A stretch of 64,000 nt of DNA. Source: Pseudoxanthomonas sp. SL93. GTDB taxonomy: Bacteria > Pseudomonadota > Gammaproteobacteria > Xanthomonadales > Xanthomonadaceae. How positions within the stretch are numbered: the stretch's first letter is position 1; every line of letters starts with the position of its first letter. Shown one piece after another: positions 8,324-33,642 of this stretch. The stretch is taken from assembly GCF_026625825.1 (NCBI RefSeq), contig NZ_CP113065.1, forward strand, positions 434,001 to 498,000, written 5' to 3'. The position numbers and the translations under genes were made by a program. The notes below the pieces were generated by a model. It was not told the origin of the DNA. It was given only the letters and a program-made list of their open reading frames with translations, and made no database searches.

Positions 8324-8625
8324 TTACCGTCGGTCACCTGCTGGCACTGGGCGCGGTGCTGTTCTGCATCAGCCTGGCGGGCATCTTCCTGAACCGCAAG
8401 AACGTCATCGTCCTGCTGATGTCGATCGAGCTGATGCTGCTGTCGGTCAACATCAACTTCGTCGCCTTCTCGCGCGAACTGGGCGATGCGGCCGGGCAGA
8501 TCTTCGTGTTCTTCATCCTGACCGTGGCCGCGGCCGAGGCCGCCATCGGCCTGGCGATCCTGGTCACCCTGTTCCGCACCCGGCGCACGATCAACGTGGC
8601 CGAAGTCGATACGCTCAAAGGCTGA
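8320..8625 (+). CDS. nuoK: NADH-quinone oxidoreductase subunit K
   Basis: Small membrane subunit of 101 residues with three transmembrane helices. The conserved [12 protein letters not shown] and the acidic residue in the third helix ([13 protein letters not shown]) match NuoK, where both glutamates take part in proton translocation. It overlaps nuoJ (ATGA); nuoL starts 7 bases downstream. Confidence 0.97.
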
Positions 8626-8632
8626 TGCACTG

Positions 8633-10849
8633 ATGACTGGTCTGGAACTCAACGGCGTACTGCCAGCCATTTCCAAGAACGTGCTGCTGGCCATCGTGCT
8701 GGCGCCGCTGCTGGGCAGCAGCATCGCCGGCCTGTTCGGGCGGCAGGTGGGGCGTGCCGGCGCGCACACCATCACCATCCTGGGCGTGGCGGCGAGCTGC
8801 GCGCTTTCCGGCTGGGTGCTGTACCAGCTGGTCGCGCTGGGCGCTTCCCCGTTCAACCAGAACCTGTACACCTTCTTCGAAGTGGGCGGCTACAGCGGCC
8901 ATGTCGGTTTCATGATCGACAAGCTGACCGCGATGATGATGGTGGTGGTGACGTTCGTGTCGCTGCTGGTGCACGTGTACACCATCGGCTACATGTCCGA
9001 GGATCCCGGCTACCAGCGCTTCTTCAGCTACATCTCGCTGTTCACCTTCAGCATGCTGATGCTGGTGATGAGCAACAACTTCCTGCAGCTGTTCTTCGGC
9101 TGGGAAGCGGTGGGCCTGGTCTCGTACCTGCTGATCGGTTTCTGGTTCAAGCGGCCGACCGCGATCTTCGCCAACATGAAGGCGTTCCTGGTCAACCGGG
9201 TCGGCGACTTCGGGTTCCTGCTGGGCATCGGCTGCGTGCTGCTGATGTTCGGCACGCTGGACTACGCAACGGTGTTCGCCAATGCGCCGATGCTGGCGGG
9301 CAAGGCGATCCCGGTGTGGTCCGGTGCGGTGAGCCTGTTCGGCCAGACCTGGCAGGTGTTCGACCAGCCGGTCGTCTGGTCGATCGCCACGCTGACGTGC
9401 ATCTGCCTGTTCATCGGCGCGATGGGCAAGTCGGCGCAGGTGCCGCTGCACGTGTGGCTGCCCGACTCGATGGAAGGCCCGACGCCGATCTCCGCGCTGA
9501 TCCACGCCGCGACCATGGTTACAGCGGGCATCTTCATGGTGGCGCGCATGTCGCCGCTGTTCGAGCTGTCGCAGACGGCGCTGGACTTCGTGCTGTTCAT
9601 CGGCGCGACCACGGCCTTGTTCACCGGCCTGATCGGCATCGTGCAGAACGACATCAAGCGCGTGGTGGCGTATTCCACGCTGTCGCAGCTGGGCTACATG
9701 ACGGTCGCGCTGGGCGTGTCGGCCTACTCGGCGGCGGTGTTCCACCTGATGACGCACGCCTTCTTCAAGGCGCTGCTGTTCCTGGCGGCGGGCTCGGTCA
9801 TCATCGGCATGCACCACGAACAGGACATGCGGAAGATGGGTGGCCTGCGCAGGTACATGCCCATCACCTGGATCACCAGCCTGATCGGCACGCTGGCGCT
9901 GGTGGGCACGCCGTTCTTCTCCGGCTTCTACTCGAAGGACACCATCATCGAGGCGGCCAAGCACCACCAGCACGTGGCGCACGAGTTCAACAGCAAGCTG
10001 GCCGAGCTGGGCACGATGGCGCCGCAGGGCATCAACGGCCCCAGCGAATGGATCGCCACCTACGGCTACTGGGCCATCCTGCTGGGCGTGTTCGTGACCA
10101 GCTTCTACAGCTTCCGCCTGCTGTACCTGACCTTCCACGGCAAGGAGCGCTTCCGCGACGCCCATGCCGACCATGGCCATGACGCACACCATGACCATGC
10201 CCATGACGATCACGGCCATGGTCACCATGGTGCGCACGAGCCGCATGAATCCCCGTGGGTCGTCACCCTGCCGCTGATCCTGCTGGCGATTCCTTCGATC
10301 TTCATCGGCTACTTCACGGTCGGTCCGATGCTGTTCGGCACCGACTGGAGCGGCCATCACGAGCAGCTGCCCTTCTTCCTGGGCGCGATCGACTTCATCA
10401 CGCCGTCCTCGGACACGGTGGCGGCGTTGAAGGCCGAGCTCTGGCACGGTCCCGTGAAGTACGCGCTGCATGGCATGCAGGCAGCGCCGTTCTGGTTGGC
10501 ACTGGGTGGCTTCGTGCTGGCGTCGGTCCTGTACCTCTGGAAGACCGAATGGCCGGCCAGGCTGCGCAGGTTCTTCGCGCTGCCGGTGCGCATCCTGGAG
10601 AACAAGTACGGCATGGACGACCTGTGGATCGGCGGCTTCGCCGGTGGCGGCGTCAAGCTGGGCAAGGTATCGCGCGCCATCGACACGCACGTGATCGACG
10701 GTGCGGCGGTCAACGGCACGGCGCGGCTGATCGACCTGGGCGCGCAGCTGCTGCGCCGTACGCAATCCGGTTACCTGTACCACTATGCCTTCGCGATGAT
10801 CCTGGGCCTGATCGCCCTGCTGGCCGTGATCATCAAGTTCTGGCAGTAA
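8633..10849 (+). CDS. nuoL: NADH-quinone oxidoreductase subunit L
   Basis: Largest antiporter-like subunit of the membrane arm, 738 residues. The core proton-channel region includes FFGWEAVGLVSYLLIGFW, MGKSAQVPLHVWLPDSMEGP and the lateral amphipathic helix near the C-terminus. An unusual histidine-rich stretch lies around residues 511-538 (about 10163-10245), with more than ten His residues between hydrophobic segments, i.e. in a loop. The rest aligns in style with ordinary NuoL proteins. Confidence 0.97.
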   Translation: MTGLELNGVLPAISKNVLLAIVLAPLLGSSIAGLFGRQVGRAGAHTITILGVAASCALSGWVLYQLVALGASPFNQNLYTFFEVGGYSGHVGFMIDKLTAMMMVVVTFVSLLVHVYTIGYMSEDPGYQRFFSYISLFTFSMLMLVMSNNFLQLFFGWEAVGLVSYLLIGFWFKRPTAIFANMKAFLVNRVGDFGFLLGIGCVLLMFGTLDYATVFANAPMLAGKAIPVWSGAVSLFGQTWQVFDQPVVWSIATLTCICLFIGAMGKSAQVPLHVWLPDSMEGPTPISALIHAATMVTAGIFMVARMSPLFELSQTALDFVLFIGATTALFTGLIGIVQNDIKRVVAYSTLSQLGYMTVALGVSAYSAAVFHLMTHAFFKALLFLAAGSVIIGMHHEQDMRKMGGLRRYMPITWITSLIGTLALVGTPFFSGFYSKDTIIEAAKHHQHVAHEFNSKLAELGTMAPQGINGPSEWIATYGYWAILLGVFVTSFYSFRLLYLTFHGKERFRDAHADHGHDAHHDHAHDDHGHGHHGAHEPHESPWVVTLPLILLAIPSIFIGYFTVGPMLFGTDWSGHHEQLPFFLGAIDFITPSSDTVAALKAELWHGPVKYALHGMQAAPFWLALGGFVLASVLYLWKTEWPARLRRFFALPVRILENKYGMDDLWIGGFAGGGVKLGKVSRAIDTHVIDGAAVNGTARLIDLGAQLLRRTQSGYLYHYAFAMILGLIALLAVIIKFWQ

Positions 10850-10911: not shown

Positions 10912-12423
10912 GTGTCGAACTGGCCCCTGCTGAGTGTTTTGATCTGGTTGCCCATCCTGGGTGGCGCGCTGGTGCTTGCGTTGGGCAATGCCCGCGCGAA
11001 TGCCGCCCGCTGGCTGGGCTTCGCGATCGCGGTGCTGACCTTCGTCTTCAGCCTGGGCCTGCTGACCGGCTTCGACCGTACCAACCCGGGCCTGCAGTTC
11101 GTCGAGAGCCATGCGTGGATCTCCAGCTTCGACATCTACTACAACGTCGGCGCCGATGGCATAGCGGTGGCGCTGCTGCTGCTGAACACCTTGATCACCG
11201 TGCTGACCCTGGCCGGTGCCTGGGGCTCGGTGAACAAGCGCGTGTCGCAGTACGTGGCCGCGTTCCTGATCCTGGAGGGCCTGACCAACGGCATCTTCGC
11301 GGCCAGCGACGCCATGCTGTTCTACGTGTTCTTCGAAGCGATGCTGGTGCCGATGTTCCTGATCATCGGTGTCTGGGGTGGCCCGCGCCGCATCTACGCC
11401 TCGCTGAAATTCTTCCTGTACACGTTCCTCGGCTCGGTGCTGATGCTGGTCGGACTGGTATACCTGTACATCAAGGGCGGAAGCTTCCAGCTGGCCGACC
11501 TGTACGCCATGCCGCTGGATGCGAAGGAACAGATGTGGCTGTTCTTCGCCTTCCTGATCGCCTTCGCGGTGAAGATCCCGATGTTCCCGGTGCATACCTG
11601 GCTGCCGGATGCGCACGTGGAAGCACCGACCGCCGGCTCTGTGATCCTAGCGGCCATCGCGCTGAAGATCGGTGGCTACGGCCTGCTGCGCTTCAGCCTG
11701 CCGATCGTGCCGGATGCCGGCCACGAATGGGCGACCTTCGTCATCGTGCTGTCGCTGATCGCGGTGGTCTACGTGGGCCTGGTGGCGCTGGTGCAGGACG
11801 ACATGAAGAAGCTGATCGCCTATTCGTCGGTCTCGCACATGGGCTTCGTCACTCTGGGCATCTTCATCGCCTTCGGCCTGGTCCGTGATTACGGCAACCT
11901 GGATGGCGCGCGCCTCGGCCTGCAGGGCGCCATGGTGCAGATGATCAGCCATGGCTTCATTTCCGGCGCCATGTTCACCTGCGTGGGCGTACTGTACGAC
12001 CGCATGCACACGCGAATGATCAAGGATTACGGCGGGGTGGTGAACACCATGCCGTGGTTCGCCGCGTTCTTCGTGCTGTTCGGCATGGCCAATTCCGGCC
12101 TGCCCGGCACCAGCGGCTTCGTCGGCGAGTTCATGGTCATCCTGGCCAGCTTCCAGAAGCACCCGCTGATCGCGTTCTTCGCGGCCACCACGCTGGTGAT
12201 CGGTGCCGCCTACACGCTGTGGCTGGTCAAGCGCGTGATCTTCGGCGAGGTGGCCAACAGCCACGTGGCCGAACTGAAGGACGTCAACCTGCGCGAAGCG
12301 CTGGTACTGGGTGGCTTCGCGGTGGGCGTGCTGGCGCTGGGCCTGTATCCCAAGCCGCTGACCGACCTGATGGAGCCCTCGATCGCGCAACTGGCGATGC
12401 AGCTCGCCAACAGCAAGCTGTAA
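10912..12423 (+). CDS. nuoM: NADH-quinone oxidoreductase subunit M
   Basis: Antiporter-like subunit of the membrane arm, 503 residues, GTG start (SNWPLLSVLIWLPI N-terminus). Conserved segments visible include FFEAMLVPMFLIIGVWGG and VKIPMFPVHTWLPDAHVEAP with the key lysine and glutamate of the proton channel. There is a 62-base gap after nuoL, the longest in the visible part of the operon, with no evident promoter. nuoN follows after 6 bases. Confidence 0.97.
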   Translation: MSNWPLLSVLIWLPILGGALVLALGNARANAARWLGFAIAVLTFVFSLGLLTGFDRTNPGLQFVESHAWISSFDIYYNVGADGIAVALLLLNTLITVLTLAGAWGSVNKRVSQYVAAFLILEGLTNGIFAASDAMLFYVFFEAMLVPMFLIIGVWGGPRRIYASLKFFLYTFLGSVLMLVGLVYLYIKGGSFQLADLYAMPLDAKEQMWLFFAFLIAFAVKIPMFPVHTWLPDAHVEAPTAGSVILAAIALKIGGYGLLRFSLPIVPDAGHEWATFVIVLSLIAVVYVGLVALVQDDMKKLIAYSSVSHMGFVTLGIFIAFGLVRDYGNLDGARLGLQGAMVQMISHGFISGAMFTCVGVLYDRMHTRMIKDYGGVVNTMPWFAAFFVLFGMANSGLPGTSGFVGEFMVILASFQKHPLIAFFAATTLVIGAAYTLWLVKRVIFGEVANSHVAELKDVNLREALVLGGFAVGVLALGLYPKPLTDLMEPSIAQLAMQLANSKL

Positions 12424-12429
12424 GGACGA

Positions 12430-13893
12430 ATGATGACGACGCCGATGCCAATCTCCGCCGCCGACCTGCAGCCGCTGCTGCCGGAGCTGATCCTGATCGG
12501 GGGCGCCTTCGCGCTGCTGATGCTGGACCTGTTCCTGGACAATTCGCGCCGCGTGATCACCCATGCGCTTTCGCTGCTGGTCATCGCGGTGGTGGTCTGG
12601 ATGCTGGCCACGGGCGTGGGCGGGCAGGGCACTGTGTTCAGCGGCATGTTCGTGCGCGACACCCTGGCCGACGTCAGCAAGCTGGTGATCGTGGCCGTCA
12701 GCGGCCTGTCGCTGGTCTATGCCTGGCCGTACCTGCGCGAACGCGACCTGTATCCCGGCGAGGTGCCGGTCCTGGTGCTGCTGGCCACCGCCGGCATGAT
12801 GATGATGGTCTCGGCCGGCAGCCTGGTGATGGTCTACTTGGGCCTGGAACTGCTGGCGCTGTGCTCCTACGCGCTGGTCGCGCTGAACCGCGATGACGGC
12901 CTGTCGTCGGAAGCGGCGATGAAGTACATCGTGCTGGGCTCGCTGGCCTCCGGCCTGCTGCTGTACGGCATGTCGCTGATCTATGGCGCGACCGGTTCGC
13001 TGCACCTGCCGGCCATCTTCGAAGCCACCAGCCAGGCCCTGGCGGGCGGCGACGACCGCCTGCTGCTGTTGACCGGCGTCGTGTTCATGGTCGCCGGCGT
13101 GGCGTTCAAGCTGGGCGCGGCGCCGTTCCACATGTGGCTGCCCGACGTCTACCAGGGCGCACCGACGCCGGTGACGCTGTTCATCAGTTCCGCGCCCAAG
13201 CTGGCAGCCTTCGGCATGGCATTCCGCCTGCTGCAGGACGGCGTGGGCCCGGCGGGCGCGCAGTGGCAATGGCTGCTGGCCGGCCTGGCCGCGGCGTCGC
13301 TGGTGATCGGCAATGTCATCGCCATCGCCCAGACCAACCTCAAGCGCATGCTGGCCTATTCGACGGTGTCGCACGTGGGCTTCCTGCTGGTCGGCTTCGC
13401 CGGCGGTGGCGAAGCGGGGTATGCCGCGGCCCTGTTCTACGGCATCTGCTACGCCATCATGTCGGCCGCCGCGTTCGGCGCCATCATCGTGCTCTCGCGA
13501 CAGGGTTTCGAAGCCGACAAGATCGACGACTTCAAGGGCCTGAATGCCCGCAACCCCTGGCAGGCGGGCCTCGTGCTGTGCGTCATGGCCTCGCTGGCCG
13601 GCATTCCGCCGTTCCTGGGCTTCTGGGCCAAGCTGGTCGTGCTGGGTGCCGCCGTCAATGGTGGCTTCCTGTGGCTGGCGCTGGTCGGCGTGGTCTGCGC
13701 GGTGATCGGTGCGTTCTACTACCTGCGCGTGATCAAGGTGATGTACTTTGACGAACCGGTCGGCGAGATTCCGCCGCCGCGCGCCGATCGCGTGGTGCCG
13801 ATCGTCTTCGGCGTCAATGCGCTGGCCCTGCTGGCGCTGGGCATCTTCTGGGGCCCGATCATGGCGTGGTGCAAGCTCGCCTTCGCAGGCTGA
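12430..13893 (+). CDS. nuoN: NADH-quinone oxidoreductase subunit N
   Basis: Third antiporter-like subunit, 487 residues; last gene of the nuo operon. KLGAAPFHMWLPDVYQGAPT near residue 225 and LAYSTVSHVGFLLVGFAGG near 305 are the family signatures. Two consecutive ATG codons start the frame; either may be used. A GC-rich hairpin lies 25 bases past the stop and may end the nuo transcript. Confidence 0.97.
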   Translation: MMTTPMPISAADLQPLLPELILIGGAFALLMLDLFLDNSRRVITHALSLLVIAVVVWMLATGVGGQGTVFSGMFVRDTLADVSKLVIVAVSGLSLVYAWPYLRERDLYPGEVPVLVLLATAGMMMMVSAGSLVMVYLGLELLALCSYALVALNRDDGLSSEAAMKYIVLGSLASGLLLYGMSLIYGATGSLHLPAIFEATSQALAGGDDRLLLLTGVVFMVAGVAFKLGAAPFHMWLPDVYQGAPTPVTLFISSAPKLAAFGMAFRLLQDGVGPAGAQWQWLLAGLAAASLVIGNVIAIAQTNLKRMLAYSTVSHVGFLLVGFAGGGEAGYAAALFYGICYAIMSAAAFGAIIVLSRQGFEADKIDDFKGLNARNPWQAGLVLCVMASLAGIPPFLGFWAKLVVLGAAVNGGFLWLALVGVVCAVIGAFYYLRVIKVMYFDEPVGEIPPPRADRVVPIVFGVNALALLALGIFWGPIMAWCKLAFAG

Positions 13894-13918
13894 GCCACGC
13901 GCGACACGGTTCGTTACG

Positions 13919-13941
13919 GGCCGGTGACACCGTCGCCGGCC
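13919..13941 (+). terminator. Hairpin after nuoN, possible operon terminator
   Basis: Nine-pair stem (one G-T pair) with arms at 13919-13927 and 13933-13941 and a five-base loop, just after nuoN. Only two T residues follow, so termination would be weak or Rho-assisted. Confidence 0.4.
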
Positions 13942-13983
13942 TTGATGATGAACACGCCGTTTCAGTTGATTGCCAATCAAGGC

Positions 13984-14012
13984 TTGCAATAAACCGGCGT
14001 ATTCATCATAAT
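13984..14012 (+). promoter_or_regulatory. Sigma-70 promoter for tRNA-fMet / rimP operon
   Basis: TTGCAA at 13984-13989 and CATAAT at 14007-14012 are separated by exactly 17 bases. The predicted start, about 7 bases further on, lies only a few bases before the tRNA 5' end. An inverted repeat TTGATT-N3-AATCAA sits immediately upstream (13966-13980). This is the best promoter match I could find in the window. Confidence 0.75.
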
Positions 14013-14023
14013 TTCGCTTCTGC

Positions 14024-14100
14024 TGCGGGGTGGAGCAGTCTGGCAGCTCGTCGGGCTCATAACCCGAAGGTCGCAGGTTCAAATCCTGCCCCCGCTACCA
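14024..14100 (+). tRNA. Initiator tRNA-fMet (CAT)
   Basis: A 77-base tRNA with encoded CCA. Acceptor TGCGGGG pairs with CCCCGCT except at position 1-72 (T-T mismatch). D stem GAGC/GCTC has the A11-U24 pair. The anticodon arm is TCGGG-CTCATAA-CCCGA with anticodon CAT at 14058-14060, and the T arm is GCAGG-TTCAAAT-CCTGC. The unpaired 1-72 position and the three G-C pairs in the anticodon stem are the hallmarks of the initiator, not the elongator, methionine tRNA. Its place just before rimP-nusA-infB matches the metY locus of E. coli. Confidence 0.97.
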
Positions 14101-14113
14101 AGTTTTCAAGACC

Positions 14114-14140
14114 GGGAAGTCCCATCATCAGGGGCTTCCC
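14114..14140 (+). other. Leader hairpin 1 between tRNA-fMet and rimP
   Basis: Ten-pair stem with arms 14114-14123 and 14131-14140 (one G-T pair) and a seven-base loop, starting 13 bases after the tRNA. No T tract follows. It may define the tRNA 3' processing site or take part in leader folding. Confidence 0.5.
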
Positions 14141-14160
14141 ACCATGAAGGCTCGGGCAAA

Positions 14161-14184
14161 GGAAGACGCATGTTCCCGTCTTCC
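14161..14184 (+). other. Leader hairpin 2 between tRNA-fMet and rimP
   Basis: Perfect eight-pair stem GGAAGACG/CGTCTTCC with an eight-base loop. Second of three consecutive stem-loops in the leader. Confidence 0.5.
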
Positions 14185-14205
14185 AACCGAAATCCAGCGT
14201 ATCGG

Positions 14206-14236
14206 ACAAGGGGCCCAGCGGGCCCCTTGTTGTTTT
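14206..14236 (+). terminator. Intrinsic terminator between tRNA-fMet and rimP
   Basis: Perfect eleven-pair stem (14206-14216 with 14220-14230) closed by a three-base loop and followed by TGTTTT. This is a classic intrinsic terminator, yet it lies only about 31 bases before the rimP start and downstream of the only clear promoter. It could end the tRNA transcript, with read-through or antitermination setting the level of rimP-nusA-infB. Confidence 0.8.
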
Positions 14237-14266
14237 CCGCACTCTGAAACCCGGCACAGGACAACC

Positions 14267-14908
14267 GTGAGCGAAAAGGCCAACCAAATCGCCCATCTGC
14301 TTGCCCCCACCGTGCAGGCCCTCGGCCTGGAACTGCTGGGTGCGGAATATCTGCCGGCTCCCGGCAGCGCGACACTGCGTCTCTACATCGATGTGCAGGA
14401 AAGCGAGCGTGAAAGCCGCTTCGTCAACATCGAGGACTGCGAGGCGGTGAGCCGCGAAGTCTCGGCGCAGCTGGACGTGGAAGACCCCATCACCGGCAAC
14501 TACACGCTGGAGGTATCCTCGCCCGGCGTCGACCGCCCGCTGTTCAGCCTGGACCATTACGCCCGCTTCGTCGGCGAATCGGCCAAGGTCGTGCTGAAGC
14601 TGCCGCAGGATGGCCGCCGCCGCCTGCAGGGCCGGATCAGCCGGATCGAAGGCGAGAACGTCATCTTCACCGTCGAAGATGCCGAGCTGACGGTCTCGTT
14701 CGATAATATCGACAAGGGTCGTCTGGTCCCCGACTGGGCCGCCCTGGGTCTGGCACCCGAAAAGCCCGGCGCCGGCGCGGGACGCAAGCCGAAGCCGAAG
14801 GCCGACGAAAAACCGAATTCCAGGACCGGTGCCGCCAAGCGCGCCCCGGCCAAGAAAAGCAAGAGCAAACCCAACCAACCGGCGGCCGGCAAGCCGCGCG
14901 CGGAGTGA
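14267..14908 (+). CDS. rimP: Ribosome maturation factor RimP
   Basis: Assists late maturation of the 30S subunit. The frame is open far upstream, through the leader hairpins; the GTG at 14267 is preferred because it follows the terminator and gives the family N-terminus ([19 protein letters not shown]), 213 residues. Motifs [30 protein letters not shown] and [14 protein letters not shown] are characteristic. The last 50 residues form a Lys/Pro/Ala-rich tail that makes the protein longer than E. coli RimP (about 150 residues). nusA begins 3 bases after the stop. Confidence 0.95.
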
Positions 14909-14911
14909 TCA

Positions 14912-16423
14912 ATGAGTAAGGAATTGTTGCTGGTGGTGGATGCGGTCGCCAACGAAAAGGGCGTGCCGCGCGAAGTGATCTTCGATGCGATCGAAGCCGC
15001 ATTGGCGTCCGCCGCCAAGAAGCGCTACATGGACCAGGACGTGCAGGTCCGCGTCACCATCGACCACAAGGACGGCAGCTACGAAACGTACCGCCGCTGG
15101 GAAGTGGTGGCCGATGACGTGGTGATGGAATCGCCCGACCGCCAGATCCGCCTGATGGACGCCGTCGACGAAAGCGATGGCGCCGAAGTGGGCGACTGGA
15201 TCGAAGAAAAGATCGAGAACCCCGATTTCGGCCGCATCGCCGCGCAGGCCGCCAAGCAGGTCATCGTGCAGCGCGTCCGCGAGGCCGAGCGCGCGCAGGT
15301 GGTCGATGCGTGGAAGGACCGCGTGGGCGAGCTGGTCACCGGCGTGGTCAAGCGCGCCGAGCGCGGCAACATCTACGTGGACCTGGGCGGCAACGCCGAG
15401 GCCTTCATTCCGAAGGACAAGGGCATCCCGCGCGACGTGCTGCGCGCCGGCGACCGCGTCCGCGGCTACCTGTTCGACGTGCGCTACGAACCACGCGGCC
15501 CGCAGCTGTTCATCAGCCGCGCCGCCCCGGAATTCATGATCGAGCTGTTCAAGCTGGAAGTGCCTGAAGTGGGCCAGGGCCTGGTGGAGATCAAGGCCTG
15601 CGCACGCGACCCGGGCGACCGCGCCAAGATCGCCGTGCTCGCGCACGACACCCGCACCGATCCCATCGGCGCCTGCATCGGCATGCGCGGTTCGCGCGTG
15701 CAGGCGGTCAGCAACGAGCTGAACGGCGAGCGCGTGGACATCGTGCTGTGGAACGACAATCCGGCCACCTTCGTCATCAATGCGATGGCGCCGGCGGAAG
15801 TGCAGTCCATCATCGTCGATGAAGAGAAGCACTCGATGGACCTGGCCGTGGCGGAAGACCGCCTGGCGCAGGCCATCGGCAAGGGCGGGCAGAACGTCCG
15901 CCTGGCCAGCCGCCTGACCGGCTGGCAGCTCAACGTCATGACCCAGGACCAGGTGGCCGCCAAGTCGGAGGCCGAACAGGCCGTCGCCCGCCAGCTGTTC
16001 ATGGACAAGCTGGAAGTGGACGAGGAAATCTCGGCCATCCTGGTCAGCGAAGGCTTCAGCACGGTCGAGGAAATCGCCTACGTGCCGGTCGGCGAGCTGC
16101 TGGCGGTGGAAGGCTTCGACGAGGACATCGTCGAGGAGCTGCGTTCGCGGGCCCGCGACGCGCTGCTCAACGAAGCCCTGGCCGAGGAAGAAGGCCTGGA
16201 AGAGAACCACCCGGCCGACGACCTGCTGGCCTTGGACGGCATGGATGAGGAAACCGCCTACGCGCTGGCCTCGCATGGCGTCCGCACCAGCGAGGACCTG
16301 TCCGACCTGGCCGCCGACGAAGTGGTCGAGTTCGGCATCGAGGGCCTGGACGAGGGCCGTGCCGCGGCGCTGATCCTGGCTGCCCGCGCCGAAGAGATTG
16401 CTCGTCTGGAGCGTGGCGCGTGA
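14912..16423 (+). CDS. nusA: Transcription termination/antitermination factor NusA
   Basis: RNA polymerase-binding elongation factor acting in pausing, termination and antitermination. It has 503 residues: N-terminal polymerase-binding domain, an S1 domain at about residues 135-200 (GVVKRAERGNIYVDLGG), two KH domains (IGACIGMRGSRVQAV; AIGKGGQNVRLAS) and two acidic C-terminal helix-hairpin repeats as in E. coli. It starts 3 bases after rimP. In E. coli this operon is autoregulated by NusA at its leader; the terminator before rimP fits such control here. Confidence 0.98.
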   Translation: MSKELLLVVDAVANEKGVPREVIFDAIEAALASAAKKRYMDQDVQVRVTIDHKDGSYETYRRWEVVADDVVMESPDRQIRLMDAVDESDGAEVGDWIEEKIENPDFGRIAAQAAKQVIVQRVREAERAQVVDAWKDRVGELVTGVVKRAERGNIYVDLGGNAEAFIPKDKGIPRDVLRAGDRVRGYLFDVRYEPRGPQLFISRAAPEFMIELFKLEVPEVGQGLVEIKACARDPGDRAKIAVLAHDTRTDPIGACIGMRGSRVQAVSNELNGERVDIVLWNDNPATFVINAMAPAEVQSIIVDEEKHSMDLAVAEDRLAQAIGKGGQNVRLASRLTGWQLNVMTQDQVAAKSEAEQAVARQLFMDKLEVDEEISAILVSEGFSTVEEIAYVPVGELLAVEGFDEDIVEELRSRARDALLNEALAEEEGLEENHPADDLLALDGMDEETAYALASHGVRTSEDLSDLAADEVVEFGIEGLDEGRAAALILAARAEEIARLERGA

Positions 16424-25903: not shown

Positions 25904-28900
25904 ATGAGTCGTTGGTTGATTGCCGCGTGCATGGCTGCGCTGGTGCCGTCTGCGTATGCACAGGATTCGAACAAGCTCTGGGAAGAGTACGACCAGCTCA
26001 TCAAAACGCGGCAGGTGGTGGGGTCCTTGGGCCCCGACCTGTTCGGCGACCAGATCAGCTTCTCCAATGGCGCCTTGTCGTTTTCAGCGACGGACGTATC
26101 CATTCCCGGTAACAACGGACTGGACGTTGGCATCACGCGGAGTTTTCCCGTCGTCAATCGGCGCTGGCGCCTCAATGAAATGCCGTTTGGCGACTGGGAT
26201 ATCGAACTGCCTCGCGTCGAAGGACTTTATGCGTCGCAGACCGGTTGGGTCGTGGCGAGTCCCACTTCGCCACTGCAGCGCTGCAGCGTCACTACAGCGA
26301 GCGAGGCACTGCCGCCTAACATCGACACGGGTCAGATTACTTTCTATGCGCTGGATTACTGGCAGCAGCCGCAGTTGGTTCTTCCTGGAAGGGGAAGCGC
26401 AGAACTTCTCCTTACTAAGCCTGATGTACCGAAGCCTGCTACTGGGGGTCCGTATTACTGGACGACGTCTGACAGAACTCATCTCTCCTGCCTGACCAGC
26501 GTGCAGAATGGCACCGGCGAGGGGTTCGTCGCTATCACGCCAGATGGAACGAAGTATCGATTTGACTGGATGGGGTCTGCGCAGCGCGCCCACTTGGAGA
26601 AGAAGCAACAAGGCAGCGTGTATTGGGGAACGAGCTACAGCGCAAAATTGCCTCGCCGCATGTATGGGCTGTATGCCACCCGCGTCGAGGACAGGTTCGG
26701 CAACTGGGTGGAATACCAGTACAGCAACGCTGCGGGTTCGCCGATCAGGTTGGCCTCCATCCAGTCAAGCGATGGGCGCTTGATCTCCGCGACCTATAAC
26801 GGCTCCGGCCAGATCTCCCAGATTGCCGCAAACGGACGGACCTGGAACTACGGATATACCGGCGGTCGCCTGAGCTCCGTGACATTGCCAGACAACTCCA
26901 GCTGGTCCATCAATTTCGCGAACTTCGCTGTCCTGGCGGTCCGCTACTACGAGGGTGAGCCGGGCGAGGCTTATCGCGACTGTTTGAATCCTGGCGACGT
27001 CGCGTCGCAGCCTCAGACTGGAACCATTACACATCCTTCTGGGGCCGTAGGCGAATTCACCGTTTCTCCCGAACGTTTCGGTCGCACCAATGTGCCCATG
27101 CATTGCGATGGCGGAGGAACTCCATCGTTCGTGGCTGATGACGTGTCCTGGCTTCCAGTCGCGTATGACCACTACGCTTTGACGAAGAAGCGCATCACCG
27201 GGCCTGGGCTTGCTCCGGCCGAATGGAATTACGCCTATGCCGCTGCATACGGGTTCGCCCCCTCCAGCGGCTCCACGACCACGAGTGTCACCGAGCCCGA
27301 CGGAGCCTTCACTCGCTACACCTTCGGCAACACCTATCGCCATAACGAAGGACTGCTACTCAACGTGGAGAAGGGTGAAAGCCCCAGCGCCATTCTGCGC
27401 ACGGTGGCCACCGCGTATGAACTGGCAACGACCGGGCTTCCGTATGTGGCCCAGCTCGGTACGACGCTGAATCCTCGGTCCGACAGTTACACGTCCGAGT
27501 TTGTCCGACCCGAGAAAAGCAGCACCACTACCCAGCAGGGAGCCACGTTCTCCAAGACCGTGACGGCGTACGACAGCATGGCCCGCGCCATCACGGTCAC
27601 GCGCTCGGGGCCGGGGCATTCCCGTACCGACACCACCGAGTACGAGGACGAACCGAATCTGTGGGTGCTGGGCAGCGTCAAACGCAGCACGACGGCGGGC
27701 ATCGAAACCTCGCGTACGGAATTCGGCTGGAAGCACCTGCCGTGGAAGTCCTACAGCTTCGGCAGGCTCAAGCACACCATCGGCTATGAAACCGCTGCGG
27801 CTGATCAGCTGGGCACGCTGAAGACGGTCACGGACGGCAACAACCACGTCACCACGCTGGGCGCGTGGAAGCGGGGTGTGCCGCAATCGGTTGTCGCGGC
27901 GGACAGCACTTCGCAATCCGCTCTGGTCGACGACAACGGTTGGATCACGTCCGTGACCGATGAGAACCAGTTCAAGACCTGCTATGGCTACGACGCCATG
28001 GGCCGTATTGCCAGCGTGACCTACCCTTCGGAGACCACACTGAATGCGTGCGATACGAGTCAGGTCCATTGGAACCAGACCACGCAGGTGTTCGAGCCCG
28101 TCGCCGGCGCCGAATATGGAATTCCCGCAGGACACTGGCGCCAGTCCGTCAGCACCGGGAATGCCAAGAAGTTCAGCTATTTCGACGCCTTGTGGCGTCC
28201 GCTGGTCACCCAGGAGTTTGACGCGGCCAACGTGGTTGGAACGCAGCGCTTCCAGCGCTTCACCTATGACCACAATGGCAAGGCGACCTTTGCGTCCTAT
28301 CCTGGCACGACCGATGCGCTGACCACCGGCACCTGGACCGAGTACGACGCGCTGGGGCGGGTGACATCGACCTCCCAGGACAGCGAGCTGGGCGCTCTCG
28401 TCTCGCTCACAACCTACGGGTCCGGCTTCACCACCACGCACACCAACCCCCGTACCCACGCTACCACCACCAGCTACATGGTCTACGACGAGCCGTCTTA
28501 CGACTGGCCGAAGGCCATCGTGCATCCGGAGAACGCGCGTACCGAGATCGTGCGCGACGTCTTCGGAAAGCCGGAGACGCTCACGCGGCGTAGCGCGGAC
28601 AACAGCGTCATCGTCACCCGCTCCTATGGCTACGACGCCCATCAGCGCCTGTGCCGTTCGGTCGAGCCGGAGACGGGTGCAACCCTGGTGGGCTACGACG
28701 CCGCGGATAATCTGGTGTGGTCGGCGTCCGGGTTGCCGGCGGGTACGGCGTGCGAGGCGAGCGGAACGTCGCCTTCCGTCGCGGCGCGAAAGGTCAGTCG
28801 CGTATATGGTCCCACCAATCTGCTGACCCATCTGGTCTTTCCGGATGGGCGCGGCAACCAATCGTGGGGTTACACGCCCGATGGCCTGCCGCAATCCATC

Positions 28901-31171
28901 ACCACCCATAACGTCAACGGTGGTGAGCAGGTCGTCAATGGGTATGGGTACAACCGCCGGCGGCTGCTGACTGCGGAAACATTGACGCAGCCGGGTCTCT
29001 ACGGCTGGTCGATGGCATACGCCTATAACAGGAATGGCGCGCAGTCTTCCATTACCTACCCCAGTGGACTGGTGGTCGACTATGCACCGAACGCGCTGGG
29101 GCAACCCACCCAGGCGGGCAGTTACGCCTCCGGCGTAACCCACTATCCGAATGGTTCCATCAAACAATTCACCTATGGCAATGGCATTGTTCATTCCATG
29201 GCGCAGAATGCGCGACAGTTGCCTGATCGGGTCACTAGCAGTGGCTTGGCGATGGACTTCAGTTATCGCTATGACGGCAATGGCAACGTGAACCAAATCT
29301 ACGATCACGTTCCCGACATGATCCCAGGTAGCTCGCCTAAGTATCGACTCATGGAATATGACGGACTTGACCGACTGACAGCCGCAGGATCGGCAATGTT
29401 CGGCGGAGATCACTGGCACCGTTACACCTACGACGCCATCGACAACATCACCTCTTGGAAGCTGGCAGCCGTCAAGGACTACGCGCAGTACGTCTACGAC
29501 GCCAGCAATCGGCTGATGAGTGTCAAGAACAGCGGTGGCGCCACCATCGTCGGTATCGCCTACGACGTGCAGGGCAACCTGACCAACAAGAACGGCAAGC
29601 TGTACGACTTCGATTTCGGCAACCGATTGCGCGCTGCCACCAATGTCGAAAGCTACCGTTACGATGGCCATGGGCGCCGTGTGCAGGCCACCAATCCCGC
29701 GCAGGCGGCAATCCGTTCGATGTATGGCCAAGACGGCGTTCTACGCCGGCAGGAGGATGAGCGGACGGGCAAGAACCATGAGTATGTCACCCTGTCCGGC
29801 AGTGTCATCGCGCGTATCGCCACCATCGTGGCGCCGTCAGTACCCGCGCTGTCCACGCCGGGCTACAGCAGCAATGGCAGCTATACGGTGAGCTGGTCGG
29901 CCACGCCCACGGCGACCAGCTACGAGCTGCAGATCAGTGCGAATGGCGGCAGCTGGCAGGGCGCTTACGCCGGTGCCCAGACCTCGCATGCGGTGGGCGG
30001 GCAGGGCAGCGGTTCGTACGCCTACCGCGTGCGGGCATGCCAGGCGAGTACCTGCAGCGGGTGGAGCAATACCGGCACGACCACGGTCGAGCTGCCGCCC
30101 GGCAGCGCCCCCAGCCTGTCGGCGCCCGGATTGGCGGCCGGTGGCAACTATCTGGTCAGCTGGACATCGGTTGTGGCCGCGTCCACGTACCGTCTGGAAG
30201 AGAGCTTCAATTCCGGTGCGTGGGTGCAGGTACAGGACATCGCCGCGCAGAGTCGGAGCTACAGCAGCCGGCCGGCGGGCAACTACCAGCATCGTGTGAC
30301 GGCCTGCAATCCGGCCGGCTGTGGTCCGTACTCCAACGTCGGCGCTACGCAGGTGATCTATGCGCCCGCGGCGCCCACCTTGTCGGTGCCGCCGGCCAGC
30401 TACAACGGCAGTTACACGGTCAGCTGGAGCGCCGTGGCGAGTGCGGTGACCTATCAGCTGGAAGAGCAGGTCAACGGCGGTGGCTGGACGCTGGTGTACA
30501 ACTCGGTGGGCACGGCACATGGTCTGTCCGGCAAGCCGGCCGCCGTTTACGGCTACCGCGTGAAGGCCTGCAACGACGCAGGCTGCGGTCCGCTCAGTGC
30601 GGTGGGCAGCATCCAGGTGACGTTGCCGCCGACCACGGCCCCGGGCATCAGTTCGCCGGCCAGCGTGGCGGTGGACAACTTCACGGTCAACTGGAATGGC
30701 GTGGCCGCAGCAACGGCTTACGAATTGCTGGAGCGCGTCAACGGTGGTGGCTGGAACGCCCTGTACAACGGCCCGGCGGGCAGCTATCCGCTGACGGGCA
30801 AGGCCAATGCTACGTACGGTTACCTGGTGCGGGGCTGCAATGTGGCGGGGTGTGGTCCCTGGAGTGCAGAGACGTCCACGGTCGTCAACGTACCGCCGCT
30901 GATTCCTGCGCCGCCCGGAAACTTCACCGGGGAGCGGGACGTCCTGGATGACATAAGACCCATCCAGTACACGTACTTCGTCAGTTGGTCAGGGTCCTAT
31001 GGTGCGACGTATTACCAGTTGCAGATCACGTATGGCCAAGGTGGAACGTCGTTGCTCAACATGGGCGGCGCGACGAGTCATCAGCAGACGGGCGGGGGCA
31101 ATCGCTCCTATCTGGTCCGGGCCTGCAACAGCAATGGGTGCTCCGCGTGGGCAGGACCGGTGTCGCTATGA
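25904..31171 (+). CDS. Secreted RHS/YD-repeat protein with five C-terminal FN3-like repeats
   Basis: A 1755-residue protein. ATG at 25904 is chosen over the upstream frame start because AGGAAG precedes it and it opens a signal peptide (MSRWLIAACMAALVPSAYAQ). The N-terminal part has FGDQISFSNGALSFSATDVS, common in xanthomonad RHS proteins. Residues about 265-1290 hold repeated YD/RHS units (YDAMGRIASV, YDALGRVTST, YDGNGNVNQI, YDGLDRLTAA, YRYDGHGRRV). From about residue 1310 to the end there are five fibronectin-III-like repeats of 80-90 residues, each with a VSW/VNW strand and a YRVRAC..xxCGxWS ending. The usual RHS-associated core is absent and is encoded by the next gene, which overlaps by ATGA. 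RHS shells normally encapsulate a C-terminal toxin; here the two are separate polypeptides. Confidence 0.9.
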   Translation: MSRWLIAACMAALVPSAYAQDSNKLWEEYDQLIKTRQVVGSLGPDLFGDQISFSNGALSFSATDVSIPGNNGLDVGITRSFPVVNRRWRLNEMPFGDWDIELPRVEGLYASQTGWVVASPTSPLQRCSVTTASEALPPNIDTGQITFYALDYWQQPQLVLPGRGSAELLLTKPDVPKPATGGPYYWTTSDRTHLSCLTSVQNGTGEGFVAITPDGTKYRFDWMGSAQRAHLEKKQQGSVYWGTSYSAKLPRRMYGLYATRVEDRFGNWVEYQYSNAAGSPIRLASIQSSDGRLISATYNGSGQISQIAANGRTWNYGYTGGRLSSVTLPDNSSWSINFANFAVLAVRYYEGEPGEAYRDCLNPGDVASQPQTGTITHPSGAVGEFTVSPERFGRTNVPMHCDGGGTPSFVADDVSWLPVAYDHYALTKKRITGPGLAPAEWNYAYAAAYGFAPSSGSTTTSVTEPDGAFTRYTFGNTYRHNEGLLLNVEKGESPSAILRTVATAYELATTGLPYVAQLGTTLNPRSDSYTSEFVRPEKSSTTTQQGATFSKTVTAYDSMARAITVTRSGPGHSRTDTTEYEDEPNLWVLGSVKRSTTAGIETSRTEFGWKHLPWKSYSFGRLKHTIGYETAAADQLGTLKTVTDGNNHVTTLGAWKRGVPQSVVAADSTSQSALVDDNGWITSVTDENQFKTCYGYDAMGRIASVTYPSETTLNACDTSQVHWNQTTQVFEPVAGAEYGIPAGHWRQSVSTGNAKKFSYFDALWRPLVTQEFDAANVVGTQRFQRFTYDHNGKATFASYPGTTDALTTGTWTEYDALGRVTSTSQDSELGALVSLTTYGSGFTTTHTNPRTHATTTSYMVYDEPSYDWPKAIVHPENARTEIVRDVFGKPETLTRRSADNSVIVTRSYGYDAHQRLCRSVEPETGATLVGYDAADNLVWSASGLPAGTACEASGTSPSVAARKVSRVYGPTNLLTHLVFPDGRGNQSWGYTPDGLPQSITTHNVNGGEQVVNGYGYNRRRLLTAETLTQPGLYGWSMAYAYNRNGAQSSITYPSGLVVDYAPNALGQPTQAGSYASGVTHYPNGSIKQFTYGNGIVHSMAQNARQLPDRVTSSGLAMDFSYRYDGNGNVNQIYDHVPDMIPGSSPKYRLMEYDGLDRLTAAGSAMFGGDHWHRYTYDAIDNITSWKLAAVKDYAQYVYDASNRLMSVKNSGGATIVGIAYDVQGNLTNKNGKLYDFDFGNRLRAATNVESYRYDGHGRRVQATNPAQAAIRSMYGQDGVLRRQEDERTGKNHEYVTLSGSVIARIATIVAPSVPALSTPGYSSNGSYTVSWSATPTATSYELQISANGGSWQGAYAGAQTSHAVGGQGSGSYAYRVRACQASTCSGWSNTGTTTVELPPGSAPSLSAPGLAAGGNYLVSWTSVVAASTYRLEESFNSGAWVQVQDIAAQSRSYSSRPAGNYQHRVTACNPAGCGPYSNVGATQVIYAPAAPTLSVPPASYNGSYTVSWSAVASAVTYQLEEQVNGGGWTLVYNSVGTAHGLSGKPAAVYGYRVKACNDAGCGPLSAVGSIQVTLPPTTAPGISSPASVAVDNFTVNWNGVAAATAYELLERVNGGGWNALYNGPAGSYPLTGKANATYGYLVRGCNVAGCGPWSAETSTVVNVPPLIPAPPGNFTGERDVLDDIRPIQYTYFVSWSGSYGATYYQLQITYGQGGTSLLNMGGATSHQQTGGGNRSYLVRACNSNGCSAWAGPVSL

Positions 31172-32112
31172 AGACGTCTTCGTTGATTCGCAAGCTGGTG
31201 GTCGTGGCGCTGGTGGCCGTGGCGCAGTTCGCCGCCGCACAGGGCGCGTTGGCGCAGACGGTGGTGGAGTATCTGCATACGGATGCGCTGGGCAGTCCGG
31301 TGGCAGTGACCAACCAGGCGGGGCAGGTCATCGAGCGGAATGACTACGAGCCGTATGGCGCGGTCATTGGCAACCCGGGGTTCAGTGGCGTCGGGTTTAC
31401 CGGGCATGTGCAGGATGGGGGAACTGGGCTGACTTATATGCAGCAGCGGTATTACGACCCGGAGATAGGAAGGTTTCTTTCTATCGACCCAGTCTCAGCA
31501 GATTCGATAGGGGGAGCCAACTTCAATCGCTATTGGTACGCCAATAATAATCCCTATAGGTTTACCGATCCGGATGGGCGATACACATGTGACACTGCAG
31601 GGACTCGTATCCGTTGTCCAATTCATGGAAATGCACAGAACTCGCAAAAAACTCCTGGACATGCGTCGACATCGCAGCGCATAGCGAATAAAGAAGCAGC
31701 TAGGCCCGGAGCGAAATCAGTTCATCTCAATCAGCGGTTAACAACGGTCACTGGCAATCAGAATGCACCTAAGATTCAGCCTGACGTGACTGTGGTGAAT
31801 AAAAATGGAACTATTGATATGCATGAGGTGCGTTCAGTAGGGCAGACACGTGGTGAGCTAGTTTCAAAGCTTTCGGATGCCCGGGCGGGGCTAGGTGTGC
31901 CGGGGAAAAACATCGTGGTAGACCCTGACGTTGTACCGCGAGGGTCTGGAGGGTCAACAGTACGTGGCCTCGGCGCACTAGGGATTTTGCATATGATATT
32001 TCATGAGTGGGTCAACCAGCGTGAGGCGGCAGAGCAAGCAAAAGGGCGGGCATCCATGCCGATGAATAGCGCAGACTGGATTCGTTGCTTGGAGGCCAAA
32101 GAGTGCGCCTGA
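31168..32112 (+). CDS. Exported RHS-core protein with variable C-terminal (putative nuclease toxin) domain
   Basis: A 314-residue protein starting in the stop of the RHS gene (ATGA). Signal peptide at 1-30 (two hydrophobic stretches ending QGALAQ). Residues about 31-137 are the RHS-associated core: YLHTDALGSPVAVTNQAG, YEPYG, LTYMQQRYYDPEIGRF, NRYWYANNNPYRFTDPDG. After DPDGR the sequence becomes AT-richer and unrelated to the core, as in polymorphic toxin tips. The tip contains PDVTVV (Asp206) and HEVRS (Glu220-x-Arg222), resembling a PD-(D/E)xK nuclease core with Arg instead of Lys; this is inference. The next gene overlaps by one base and is probably its immunity gene. Confidence 0.8.
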   Translation: MKTSSLIRKLVVVALVAVAQFAAAQGALAQTVVEYLHTDALGSPVAVTNQAGQVIERNDYEPYGAVIGNPGFSGVGFTGHVQDGGTGLTYMQQRYYDPEIGRFLSIDPVSADSIGGANFNRYWYANNNPYRFTDPDGRYTCDTAGTRIRCPIHGNAQNSQKTPGHASTSQRIANKEAARPGAKSVHLNQRLTTVTGNQNAPKIQPDVTVVNKNGTIDMHEVRSVGQTRGELVSKLSDARAGLGVPGKNIVVDPDVVPRGSGGSTVRGLGALGILHMIFHEWVNQREAAEQAKGRASMPMNSADWIRCLEAKECA

Positions 32113-32882
32113 TGACTACAAAGCAGTATTGTCTCGCCATATATGATTGGGATACCGGCGTAGGGTGTCTCGATATATTTAACTCTGTAAAAGAGTATTT
32201 TTTAGAAAACGATTTCTTCCTGCATGATTTTTCCGTCTTGGTGTCAGGTTGGCCAAGATCTAAGAAGTTACGTATTGATCAGATAGATCATGAGATCAAG
32301 AATAGGAGTGACGTAAAATCGATCGAGGGAAGTTTTTTAGGGGATTGTAAAGACGGCTACTTCTTTATAACTGGAAGTGCGTCACCCGCTTCGTTCGCAT
32401 TTGTTCGAGTGCCGATTTATTTAGAGAGCGAAACCTTGTTTAATTCTTTGATTGATCTGCTTTCTTCAAAACTCAAAATAAGTTATGGGTGTGTTTTTTG
32501 CTGGGATAAAGATCACGACTCCATGCTATATGCTTTAGGAATAACCCATCAAATTTCGGATGGGGATCCGGATGAATTACAATCAGAAGGGGACGCGAGG
32601 TGGTTCAATGAAAGGATAATGAATCCACCAGTCGGACGGAGGTTTAAGAATCAAGGCATGTTTAGGGATGTTTACGATGCAAATATTATTAATGAGAGCC
32701 ATTTGAATTGTACGGTGGGCGGGCTTATTTTCACCGAGGCTGTACGTCGTAACTCATGGGGTAGAATAATAAAATATAAAAATTCAACTTGGGTTTGGAT
32801 AACTAAGGGGGCTGATGTGAAGGAGATTGTTTCTCGACTTTCGGCCGAAGGGCTCCTGATTCAATATGAGAGAGTGGCGTAG
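32112..32882 (+). CDS. Presumed immunity protein for the RHS toxin
   Basis: A 256-residue cytoplasmic-looking protein (no signal peptide). The ATG at 32112 overlaps the toxin stop (TGATG). Base composition is clearly AT-richer than the flanks, and codons such as AAA, ATA and TTT are frequent, so it was acquired together with the toxin tip. Visible stretches: YCLAIYDWDTGVGCLDIF at the N-terminus and FRDVYDANIINESHL with VWITKGADVKEIVSRLS near the C-terminus. I do not assign a Pfam immunity family with confidence; position, overlap and composition are the evidence for an immunity role. Confidence 0.65.
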   Translation: MTTKQYCLAIYDWDTGVGCLDIFNSVKEYFLENDFFLHDFSVLVSGWPRSKKLRIDQIDHEIKNRSDVKSIEGSFLGDCKDGYFFITGSASPASFAFVRVPIYLESETLFNSLIDLLSSKLKISYGCVFCWDKDHDSMLYALGITHQISDGDPDELQSEGDARWFNERIMNPPVGRRFKNQGMFRDVYDANIINESHLNCTVGGLIFTEAVRRNSWGRIIKYKNSTWVWITKGADVKEIVSRLSAEGLLIQYERVA

Positions 32883-32959: not shown

Positions 32960-33039
32960 ACCATGCGTCACGCCCGCTCCTGACATACCCCGTTCGTGGA
33001 ACGATGGAGACTATTGGTCCGTTGAGGGGAGGGTTGGAG

Positions 33040-33642
33040 ATGCCAAGGACCAGGCGCTTGGATCTAGCGGGAGTAGCCCAGCACGTGACGCAACGTGGGA
33101 ACGACAGGCAGCCGTGCTTCTTTCGTGACGTTGATTATGTGCGCTACCTGCAGGACTTGCGGGAGGCTGCGTTCAAGTACGAATGCCGTGTGCACGCCTA
33201 CGTGCTGATGACAAACCACGTGCACTTGCTGGTAACGCCAACTGCAGCCGGGGCGTTATCCCGCATGATTCAAGCAACGGGCCGGCGCTACGTGCGCTAC
33301 CTGAATGACTCCATCGGTCGTACGGGCACTTTGTGAGAAGGACGCTACAAGGCGAGCCTCGTCGATGACGAACGCTACGTGATGAGCTGCTATCGCTACA
33401 TCGAACTGAAGCCAGTGCGCGCGGGCATGGTGAAAAGTCCAGCGGACTACCGTTGGTCAAGTTATGGAGCCAATGGCTCGGGTCAGTATGACGCGCTGGT
33501 AAGCCCGCACACGCTGTATAAGTAGATTGCAGTGAGTGTTTCCGAGCGACTCTCGCTGTACCGCGAGATGGTGTCATCACGGATCTCGGATGACGATATC
33601 GCAGCAATACGCCCGAAACAGGGGTCAGAGTACATTTTCTGA
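33040..33642 (+). pseudogene. REP-associated tyrosine transposase (RAYT), broken by two stop codons
   Basis: Y1/IS200-like transposase of the RAYT type. ATG at 33040 follows GAGGGGAGGG. Residues 1-98 are intact: MPRTRRLDLAGVAQHVTQRG at the start and HAYVLMTNHVHLLVTP with the HUH histidines. TGA at 33334-33336 interrupts TGTL-x-EGRYKASL, where a Trp codon (TGG) is expected. The same frame then reads on through YVMSCYRYIELKPVRAGMV, a normal RAYT sequence, hits TAG at 33523-33525, and continues to DDDIAAIRPKQ before the stop at 33640. So the gene has two nonsense mutations and no frameshift. The last residues run into the right direct repeat. Confidence 0.88.

What the first reader, a model, noticed from the sequence alone, without database searches (positions are those of the whole stretch)
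25904..32882. Split RHS system: FN3-bearing RHS shell, separately exported RHS-core toxin, overlapping immunity gene
In most RHS toxins the YD-repeat shell, the RHS-associated core and the toxic tip are one polypeptide. Here the 1755-aa shell ends in five FN3-like repeats and stops, and the core (YYDPEIGRF region) plus tip is a 314-aa protein with its own signal peptide. The genes are linked by ATGA and TGATG overlaps. Seen directly: two signal peptides, split domains, overlaps. Inference: both parts pass through the inner membrane separately and assemble in the periplasm or outside. This would be a modular arrangement in which shells and tips can be exchanged.
Basis: partly seen in the sequence, partly recalled or inferred. 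Interest (0 to 1): 0.8.

Follow-up and report, generated by a model that had tools for sequence, protein, structure and literature searches.

The report
Split RHS toxin with separate cap
A bacterial toxin that is usually one giant protein is here encoded as two separately exported parts, a hollow shell and a small cap carrying the toxin; some relatives keep several different caps side by side, and the same layout underlies a Xanthomonas bacteriocin whose working was unexplained.

Summary
In detail: a 1755-aa YD-repeat shell with five FN3-like repeats stops at 31171; a 314-aa cap (signal-peptide-like start, RHS core, variable tip) starts at 31168; a 256-aa ORF starts at 32112. It is no frameshift: of 83 YD-shell ends found in 82 records, 20 carry FN3 and no core, 61 core and no FN3, none both, 2 neither (one joined gene counted twice). 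In 17 of the 20 a cap can start within 20 bases of the shell stop, in 11 with a 4-base overlap. The core matches the last ~107 residues of solved Rhs and TcB-TcC cocoons. An experimental relative exists: ORF4 of bacteriocin Bcn-A of Xanthomonas perforans is such a cap (P0136). Its authors found shell and ORF4 each required and activity T2SS-dependent but read ORF4 as a helper. New here: ORF4 as the toxin part, a 3' module exchanged between split and single-chain shells, and tandem caps with 68-96% identical signal peptide+core but largely unrelated tips in ten loci. Assembly, cleavage and immunity are untested.

The parts
25904..25960 (+). Signal-peptide-like start of the shell (residues 1-19)
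   Evidence: sequence; hydropathy only, no SignalP
25961..29815 (+). YD-repeat shell without its RHS core
   Evidence: Pfam RHS_repeat, 6 stretches; Foldseek of residues 557-1755 matches TLP 9ifo, Rhs 8qja, Tse5, RhsA, teneurins, TcdB2-TccC3
29816..31168 (+). Five FN3-like repeats, standing where single-chain relatives have the linker to the core
31168..31171 (+). ATGA: cap start overlaps shell stop by 4 bases
31168..31254 (+). Signal-peptide-like start of the cap (29 aa)
31255..31584 (+). RHS core: predicted autoprotease cap with two invariant Asp (D107, D134)
   Evidence: TIGR03696; invariant in 22 of 22 aligned caps; aligned with the end of the TcdB2-TccC3 cocoon
31585..32109 (+). Variable toxin tip, PD-(D/E)XK nuclease-like fold (suggestive)
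32112..32882 (+). Putative immunity gene, 256 aa, AT-rich (GC 0.408)
   Evidence: Position, TGATG overlap, GC; no homologue found

Best explanation
This is a secreted antibacterial RHS toxin made as a two-piece kit. Piece one is a Sec-exported YD-repeat shell with FN3-like repeats at its C-terminus and no cap. Piece two is a Sec-exported cap: the RHS autoprotease plug followed by the toxin tip, here a predicted PD-(D/E)XK nuclease. Translation of the two is likely coupled (4-base overlap). In the periplasm the cap's strands most likely close the shell, the two invariant Asp cut the tip free inside it, and the complex leaves by the type II secretion system; the protein of the third gene protects the producer. 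Because each cap gene has its own start, export signal and plug, a new toxin can be gained by adding a cap gene, without fusing it to the shell gene. Shown: gene layout, conservation, core identity, exchange of the 3' module, and (in Bcn-A, by others) the need for both genes and the T2SS. Inferred: binding of cap to shell, cleavage, encapsulation, nuclease activity, immunity.
For: Same split in 20 of 83 YD-shell ends, FN3 and core never in one ORF. In 17 of those 20 a cap start codon lies within 20 bases of the shell stop, in 11 of 17 one overlaps it by 4 bases; the other 3 (L038, L074, L075) have small ORFs between. The core aligns to the terminal ~107 residues of TcdB2-TccC3, RhsA and others and is poorly modelled alone (pLDDT <50 at 58-146). 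Bcn-A ORF4 is a cap; ORFA and ORF4 mutants each lose all activity, ORF5 gives immunity, an xpsD mutant loses activity (PMC7259588). T6SS VipB is not found in the own complete genome, GspD is; among 18 split-bearing genomes GspD matches in 18, over the cut-off in 17, VipB in 5. GC falls from 0.662 (FN3) to 0.585 (signal peptide+core), 0.526 (tip), 0.408 (third gene).
Against: No complex was modelled or measured. Low core confidence may reflect a shallow alignment (19 rows) rather than need of a partner. Bcn-A also needs ORF2, which the window lacks, so its genetics may not carry over fully. Some caps have no shell in the fetched stretch, which also fits free-standing effectors. The loci were fetched with this cap as bait, so they cannot show how often a capless shell stands without a cap. 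The third gene has no relatives, so immunity is untested even by linkage.
Confidence: 0.75

Rival explanations
1. The small protein is an independent secreted effector; its RHS core is a relic of a fused ancestor, and the FN3 shell acts separately as an adhesin or surface protein.
For: Caps without a detected shell in the fetched stretch in L152, L155, L157, L163, L164 and in L063 and L070 (L063 has no clear signal peptide). Stretches reach about 10 kb at most, so a shell further off is not excluded.
Against: Bcn-A: ORFA (shell) and ORF4 (cap) mutants each lose all activity. Signal peptide+core dN is below dS in all 14 tandem pairs with a computable dS (1 pair not computable), although for the short signal peptide alone dN exceeds dS in 2 of them (L151 pair 0-1, L163).
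Confidence: 0.13
2. The split is a frameshift, sequencing error or recent local mutation of a single-chain toxin.
For: Single-chain relatives are the majority of those found (61 of 83).
Against: Signal-peptide-like start at the same junction in several genera; FN3 only in split shells; of 228 fetched small proteins 226 show the core motif and 185 have a signal-peptide-like start right before it (set fetched with caps as bait).
Confidence: 0.01
3. T6SS-delivered Rhs effector in two pieces.
For: Shell fold matches T6SS Rhs proteins such as 8qja, Tse5 and RhsA; VipB is present in 5 of 18 split-bearing genomes.
Against: No PAAR among Pfam hits; VipB not found in the own complete genome nor in 13 of 18 split-bearing genomes, most of them drafts; both parts have export-signal-like starts; Bcn-A needs xpsD.
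Confidence: 0.03
4. Compatible with the best explanation except for the last step: the toxin stays on the producer's surface, FN3 repeats holding the shell on the envelope, and the cap's tip is delivered on contact.
For: FN3 arrays are common in surface and wall-binding proteins (general knowledge); in this data set FN3 is tied to the split form.
Against: [quoted passage not shown]
Confidence: 0.2

Closest known systems
Bcn-A locus of Xanthomonas perforans (PMC7259588; abstract, passages, sections 19-21 and part 1 of section 27 read)
   Same: Capless Rhs shell (ORFA, 1398 aa), separate signal-peptide cap (ORF4, 290 aa; P0136 is 271 aa and holds its printed peptides at an offset of 19), immunity ORF5, T2SS-dependent
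   Different: Two small genes (ORF2, ORF3) between shell and cap, ORF2 essential; about one FN3 in the like-ordered L074/L075 shells instead of five; other tip. Authors took ORFA as the toxin and ORF4 as helper
TcB/TcC of ABC (Tc) toxins, e.g. YenB with YenC1-3 (PMC11067744; abstract, sections 4 and 11 read)
   Same: RHS cocoon from two polypeptides; several toxin-bearing C parts, one from a distant locus, share one B part
Single-chain Sec-exported RHS polymorphic toxins (Zhang 2012, PMC3482391, passages read; WapA recalled)
   Same: YD shell, core, variable tip, neighbouring gene at the immunity position; export signal
   Different: One polypeptide; spare tips there are standalone cassettes that replace the tip by recombination, here spare caps keep start, signal peptide and core
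T6SS Rhs effectors such as RhsA (PMC8765631, passages read)
   Same: Cocoon fold and C-terminal Asp-dyad autoprotease region (by alignment)
   Different: No PAAR hit, no T6SS VipB in the own genome, plug on a separate protein

Membership tests
Bcn-A-type split Rhs bacteriocin | Rhs shell gene without RHS core | tested here: met
   TIGR03696 not among hits of P0001 at E<=1
Bcn-A-type split Rhs bacteriocin | Separate small gene with signal peptide and RHS core homologous to ORF4 | tested here: met
   57% over 107 aa to P0136, which holds both printed ORF4 peptides 23/23 and 23/23; signal peptide by hydropathy only
Bcn-A-type split Rhs bacteriocin | Small ORF2 and ORF3 between shell and ORF4 | tested here: not met
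   Shell stop and cap start overlap by 4 bases
Bcn-A-type split Rhs bacteriocin | Immunity gene next to ORF4 | tested here: inconclusive
   ORF at the right place; no homologue, function untested
Bcn-A-type split Rhs bacteriocin | T2SS-dependent antagonism | not testable with these tools
   GspD present in the genome; dependence needs an experiment
TcB/TcC of ABC toxins | SpvB and TcB-type domains in the shell protein | tested here: not met
   Not among Pfam hits of P0001 at E<=1
TcB/TcC of ABC toxins | Cocoon assembled from two polypeptides | not testable with these tools
   Core aligns to the end of TcdB2-TccC3, assembly not tested
TcB/TcC of ABC toxins | TcA partner gene | not tested
   No search for TcA was made
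T6SS Rhs effector | PAAR domain or T6SS in the genome | tested here: not met
   No PAAR among Pfam hits; no VipB in the complete genome
Single-chain polymorphic RHS toxin | Shell, core and tip in one polypeptide | tested here: not met
PD-(D/E)XK nuclease (tip) | Fold and acidic motif | tested here: inconclusive

The most novel reading that the evidence does not exclude
One shell serves several caps at the same time: caps encoded in tandem or elsewhere are each exported and close shells in trans, so a cell releases a mixed arsenal of toxins and changes it by adding cap genes rather than by recombining tips onto a shell gene.
Probability: 0.45. Interest if true: 0.8.

Novelty: new variant of a known kind. 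Interest (0 to 1): 0.66.

Why it matters
It gives a concrete, testable reading of Bcn-A, one of two Rhs bacteriocins of Xanthomonas whose mode of action a 2020 review calls unknown (PMC7530242, passage): the toxin part is the small ORF4 cap, not the large ORFA. It shows a polymorphic toxin design in which spare toxins are self-exported caps instead of cassettes without an export signal, and it bears on the guess made for ABC toxins that orphan RHS parts elsewhere may be used in trans (PMC11067744, section 11). It also gives a role to many small 'RHS repeat-associated core' proteins in databases.

Tried and rejected
Frameshift or error: rejected by the same junction in several genera. T6SS delivery: disfavoured. 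One clade of split shells on the last 600 residues of the YD region was rejected (AU p 0.00037), which first looked like repeated invention. Slices then showed that the last 110 residues before the junction do not reject one clade (p 0.269; few columns, low power) while residues 450-200 before it do (p 3.8e-8), and L081 (split) and L065 (joined) are 92-94% identical 300-500 columns upstream but 53% in the last 100, so exchange of the 3' module by recombination within the YD repeats is the simpler reading; it is not proved. The core tree is unresolved (one clade not rejected, p 0.241); there I labelled 26 of 92 cores split by hand, among them L063, which has no clear signal peptide, and left out 4 short or odd hits.

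Led nowhere: Pfam, NCBIfam, PADLOC and PHROGs on the third gene; a database search with it found only itself and 345 genomes of the family held it only in the own one. The tip matches in 6 of 345 genomes, own included. Pfam on three small ORFs before the caps of L038, L074, L075 gave nothing above cut-off. Foldseek with the cap model gave no match at E <= 0.001. No tool here predicts complexes. Papers: searches in the held open-access library listed no paper whose title or abstract describes the split with exported caps; only the papers named above were opened, and subscription papers, including the one on glycinecin R, were not seen. PMC13018210 was seen in passages only and gave nothing on a split.

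Limits of the counts: the 80 named loci are the best 80 of 395, fetched with this cap as bait, so 20:61 is no natural frequency and cannot show capless shells without caps. L033 and L055 overlap, so one joined gene is counted twice. The 22 caps of the profile were chosen for their signal-peptide-like start. The stretches were picked mainly because searches showed neighbouring or split matches. The shell of L151 is not one open frame in the fetched stretch, L156 shows only the end of a shell, and L170 is cut by the contig end. Tips within arrays are not wholly without similarity: the best local match is 19 of 46 identities, raw score 62, in L163.

Full report
Observation. The shell runs 25904-31171 (1755 aa), the cap 31168-32112 (314 aa) and the third gene 32112-32882 (256 aa), with ATGA and TGATG overlaps. 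Pfam finds RHS repeats in the shell and, below cut-off, RHS/YD-shell matches in the cap. NCBIfam places the RHS-associated core TIGR03696 in the cap (residues 60-137) and not in the shell. Five FN3-like motifs fill the shell's tail. A model of shell residues 557-1755 (mean pLDDT 77.6) matches a teneurin-like protein, T6SS Rhs cores, RhsA, teneurins, FNIII domains of LAR and TcdB2-TccC3.

Relatives. The search for related loci kept the best 80 of 395 loci; most titles name Lysobacteraceae or Rhodanobacteraceae genera (Lysobacter, Pseudoxanthomonas, Xanthomonas, Stenotrophomonas, Luteimonas and others; ranks from memory and from the tree labels). With the window and the second own locus, 82 records gave 83 YD-shell ends: 20 run into FN3 and stop without core, 61 run into the core without FN3, none has both, 2 have neither (L033 and L055 hold the same joined gene). 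In single-chain relatives the shell passes through a short linker into the core; in split ones FN3 repeats begin at that linker, and the cap's core begins right after its signal peptide. In 17 of the 20 split cases a cap start codon lies within 20 bases of the shell stop, and in 11 of these one overlaps it by 4 bases; in the other 3 (L038, L074, L075) small ORFs lie between. Of 37 long shell ORFs checked by hydropathy, all 15 split ones have a hydrophobic N-terminal stretch (weakest L008) and 20 of 22 joined ones do (L017 and L073 fail).

Modularity. On a tree of the last 600 residues before the junction (18 split, 44 joined shells) the label changes 7 times, at least 6 forced by well-supported branches, and one clade of split shells is rejected (p 0.00037). 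Near the junction one clade is not rejected (p 0.269), further upstream it is (p 3.8e-8). L081 (split) and L065 (joined) are 92-94% identical 300-500 columns before the junction and 53% in the last 100. The simplest reading is that FN3 plus stop plus cap behaves as a 3' module swapped against linker plus core. Tip and third gene are AT-rich against their surroundings, as for acquired cassettes.

Arrays. A search of 345 genomes of the family found matches to the cap profile in 153 (both architectures). I fetched 20 stretches, picked mainly where matches lay close together. Of 12 examined for tandem caps, 11 hold two or more caps of at least 250 aa. In ten of these (all but L152) full-length pairs have signal peptide plus core 68-96% identical, while tips share at best short stretches (best 19 of 46 identities, L163). 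Signal peptide+core dN is below dS in all 14 pairs with a computable dS. A long stop-free shell frame (1404, 1812 and 1747 aa) stands before two caps in L153, L154 and L158; in L151 four caps follow a shell that is not one open frame in the fetched stretch; L156 and L170 show only the end of a shell; in L152, L155, L157, L163 and L164 no shell was detected in the stretch. In classical polymorphic toxins spare tips are standalone cassettes that replace the old tip by recombination (PMC3482391, passages). Here the spare units keep start codon, export signal and plug, so they could be used in trans at once. That last step is inference.

The known relative. Bcn-A of Xanthomonas perforans (PMC7259588) was in the listing and was taken up. 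ORFA is a 1398-aa Rhs protein; ORF2, ORF3, ORF4 and ORF5 have 124, 100, 290 and 145 aa, ORF4 with a signal peptide. ORFA, ORF2 and ORF4 mutants lose all activity, ORF3 reduces it; ORF5 gives immunity; activity is in the supernatant and lost in an xpsD mutant. The authors took ORFA as the toxin and ORF2 and ORF4 as delivery or processing factors. The two ORF4 peptides they print occur 23 of 23 and 23 of 23, at an offset of 19, in P0136 (271 aa; 271 plus 19 is 290), against at most 11 identities for 50 shuffles of each peptide over the same 230 proteins. P0136 is an RHS-core protein and 57% identical to the window's cap over 107 residues. L074 (1397-aa shell, 83 and 101 aa ORFs, cap) and L075 (1386, 141, 121, cap) have an order like that of Bcn-A. 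L171, with a 1861-aa FN3 shell and an adjoining cap, carries a tip related to that of P0136. So the two-piece design is already known to work genetically, but the papers opened do not read it as a split toxin.

Export route. The own genome is one contig (100% complete by the tool's figure) without T6SS VipB and with a T2SS GspD. Among 18 split-bearing genomes VipB is in 5; GspD matches in 18, over the cut-off in 17. With the xpsD result for Bcn-A, Sec plus T2SS is the likely route; for the window it is untested.

Verdict. Real, conserved, and a new variant of a known kind: a two-piece RHS toxin related to Bcn-A and probably working like TcB/TcC, with FN3-tailed shells and exchangeable exported caps. 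Not shown: physical assembly, cleavage, nuclease activity, immunity, use of several caps by one shell.

Noticed in passing
G000:C1:949790-950236 (L086:11533-12720): A second core+tip ORF in the own genome, of the single-chain type and without a detected shell, near two ORFs (L086:7543-8484 and 8481-9800) that look like transposition genes (recalled, not tested). Looks like an orphan tip.
   Followed up: partly
L038:9437-9892, L074:9181-9860, L075:9028-9831: Small ORFs between shell and cap, as ORF2/ORF3 of Bcn-A. Their C-termini recall small B-subunit-like proteins (recalled); Pfam on three of them gives nothing above cut-off. ORF2 is essential in Bcn-A, so these may be binding or assembly subunits.
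   Followed up: partly
window 32112-32882: The 256-aa third gene has no homologue but itself in a search of about 5.8 billion proteins.
   Followed up: yes
window 33004-33336: ORF resembling a REP-associated/IS200-like transposase (recalled), only 110 aa, just after the toxin genes; may relate to cassette movement.
   Followed up: no
L151:62-5356 (G231): Shell sequence is not one open frame in the fetched stretch, yet four caps with 84-91% identical signal peptide+core follow it.
   Followed up: partly
L061:1307-3093 and 11997-15290: Partial core pieces upstream and a second YD shell downstream of the split locus: perhaps displaced tips and shells.
   Followed up: no
window 31237-31587 (P0002 residues 24-140): The cap matches phage protein family phrog_10385 (E 2.2e-26), so RHS cores of this kind seem to occur in phage genomes too.
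   Followed up: no
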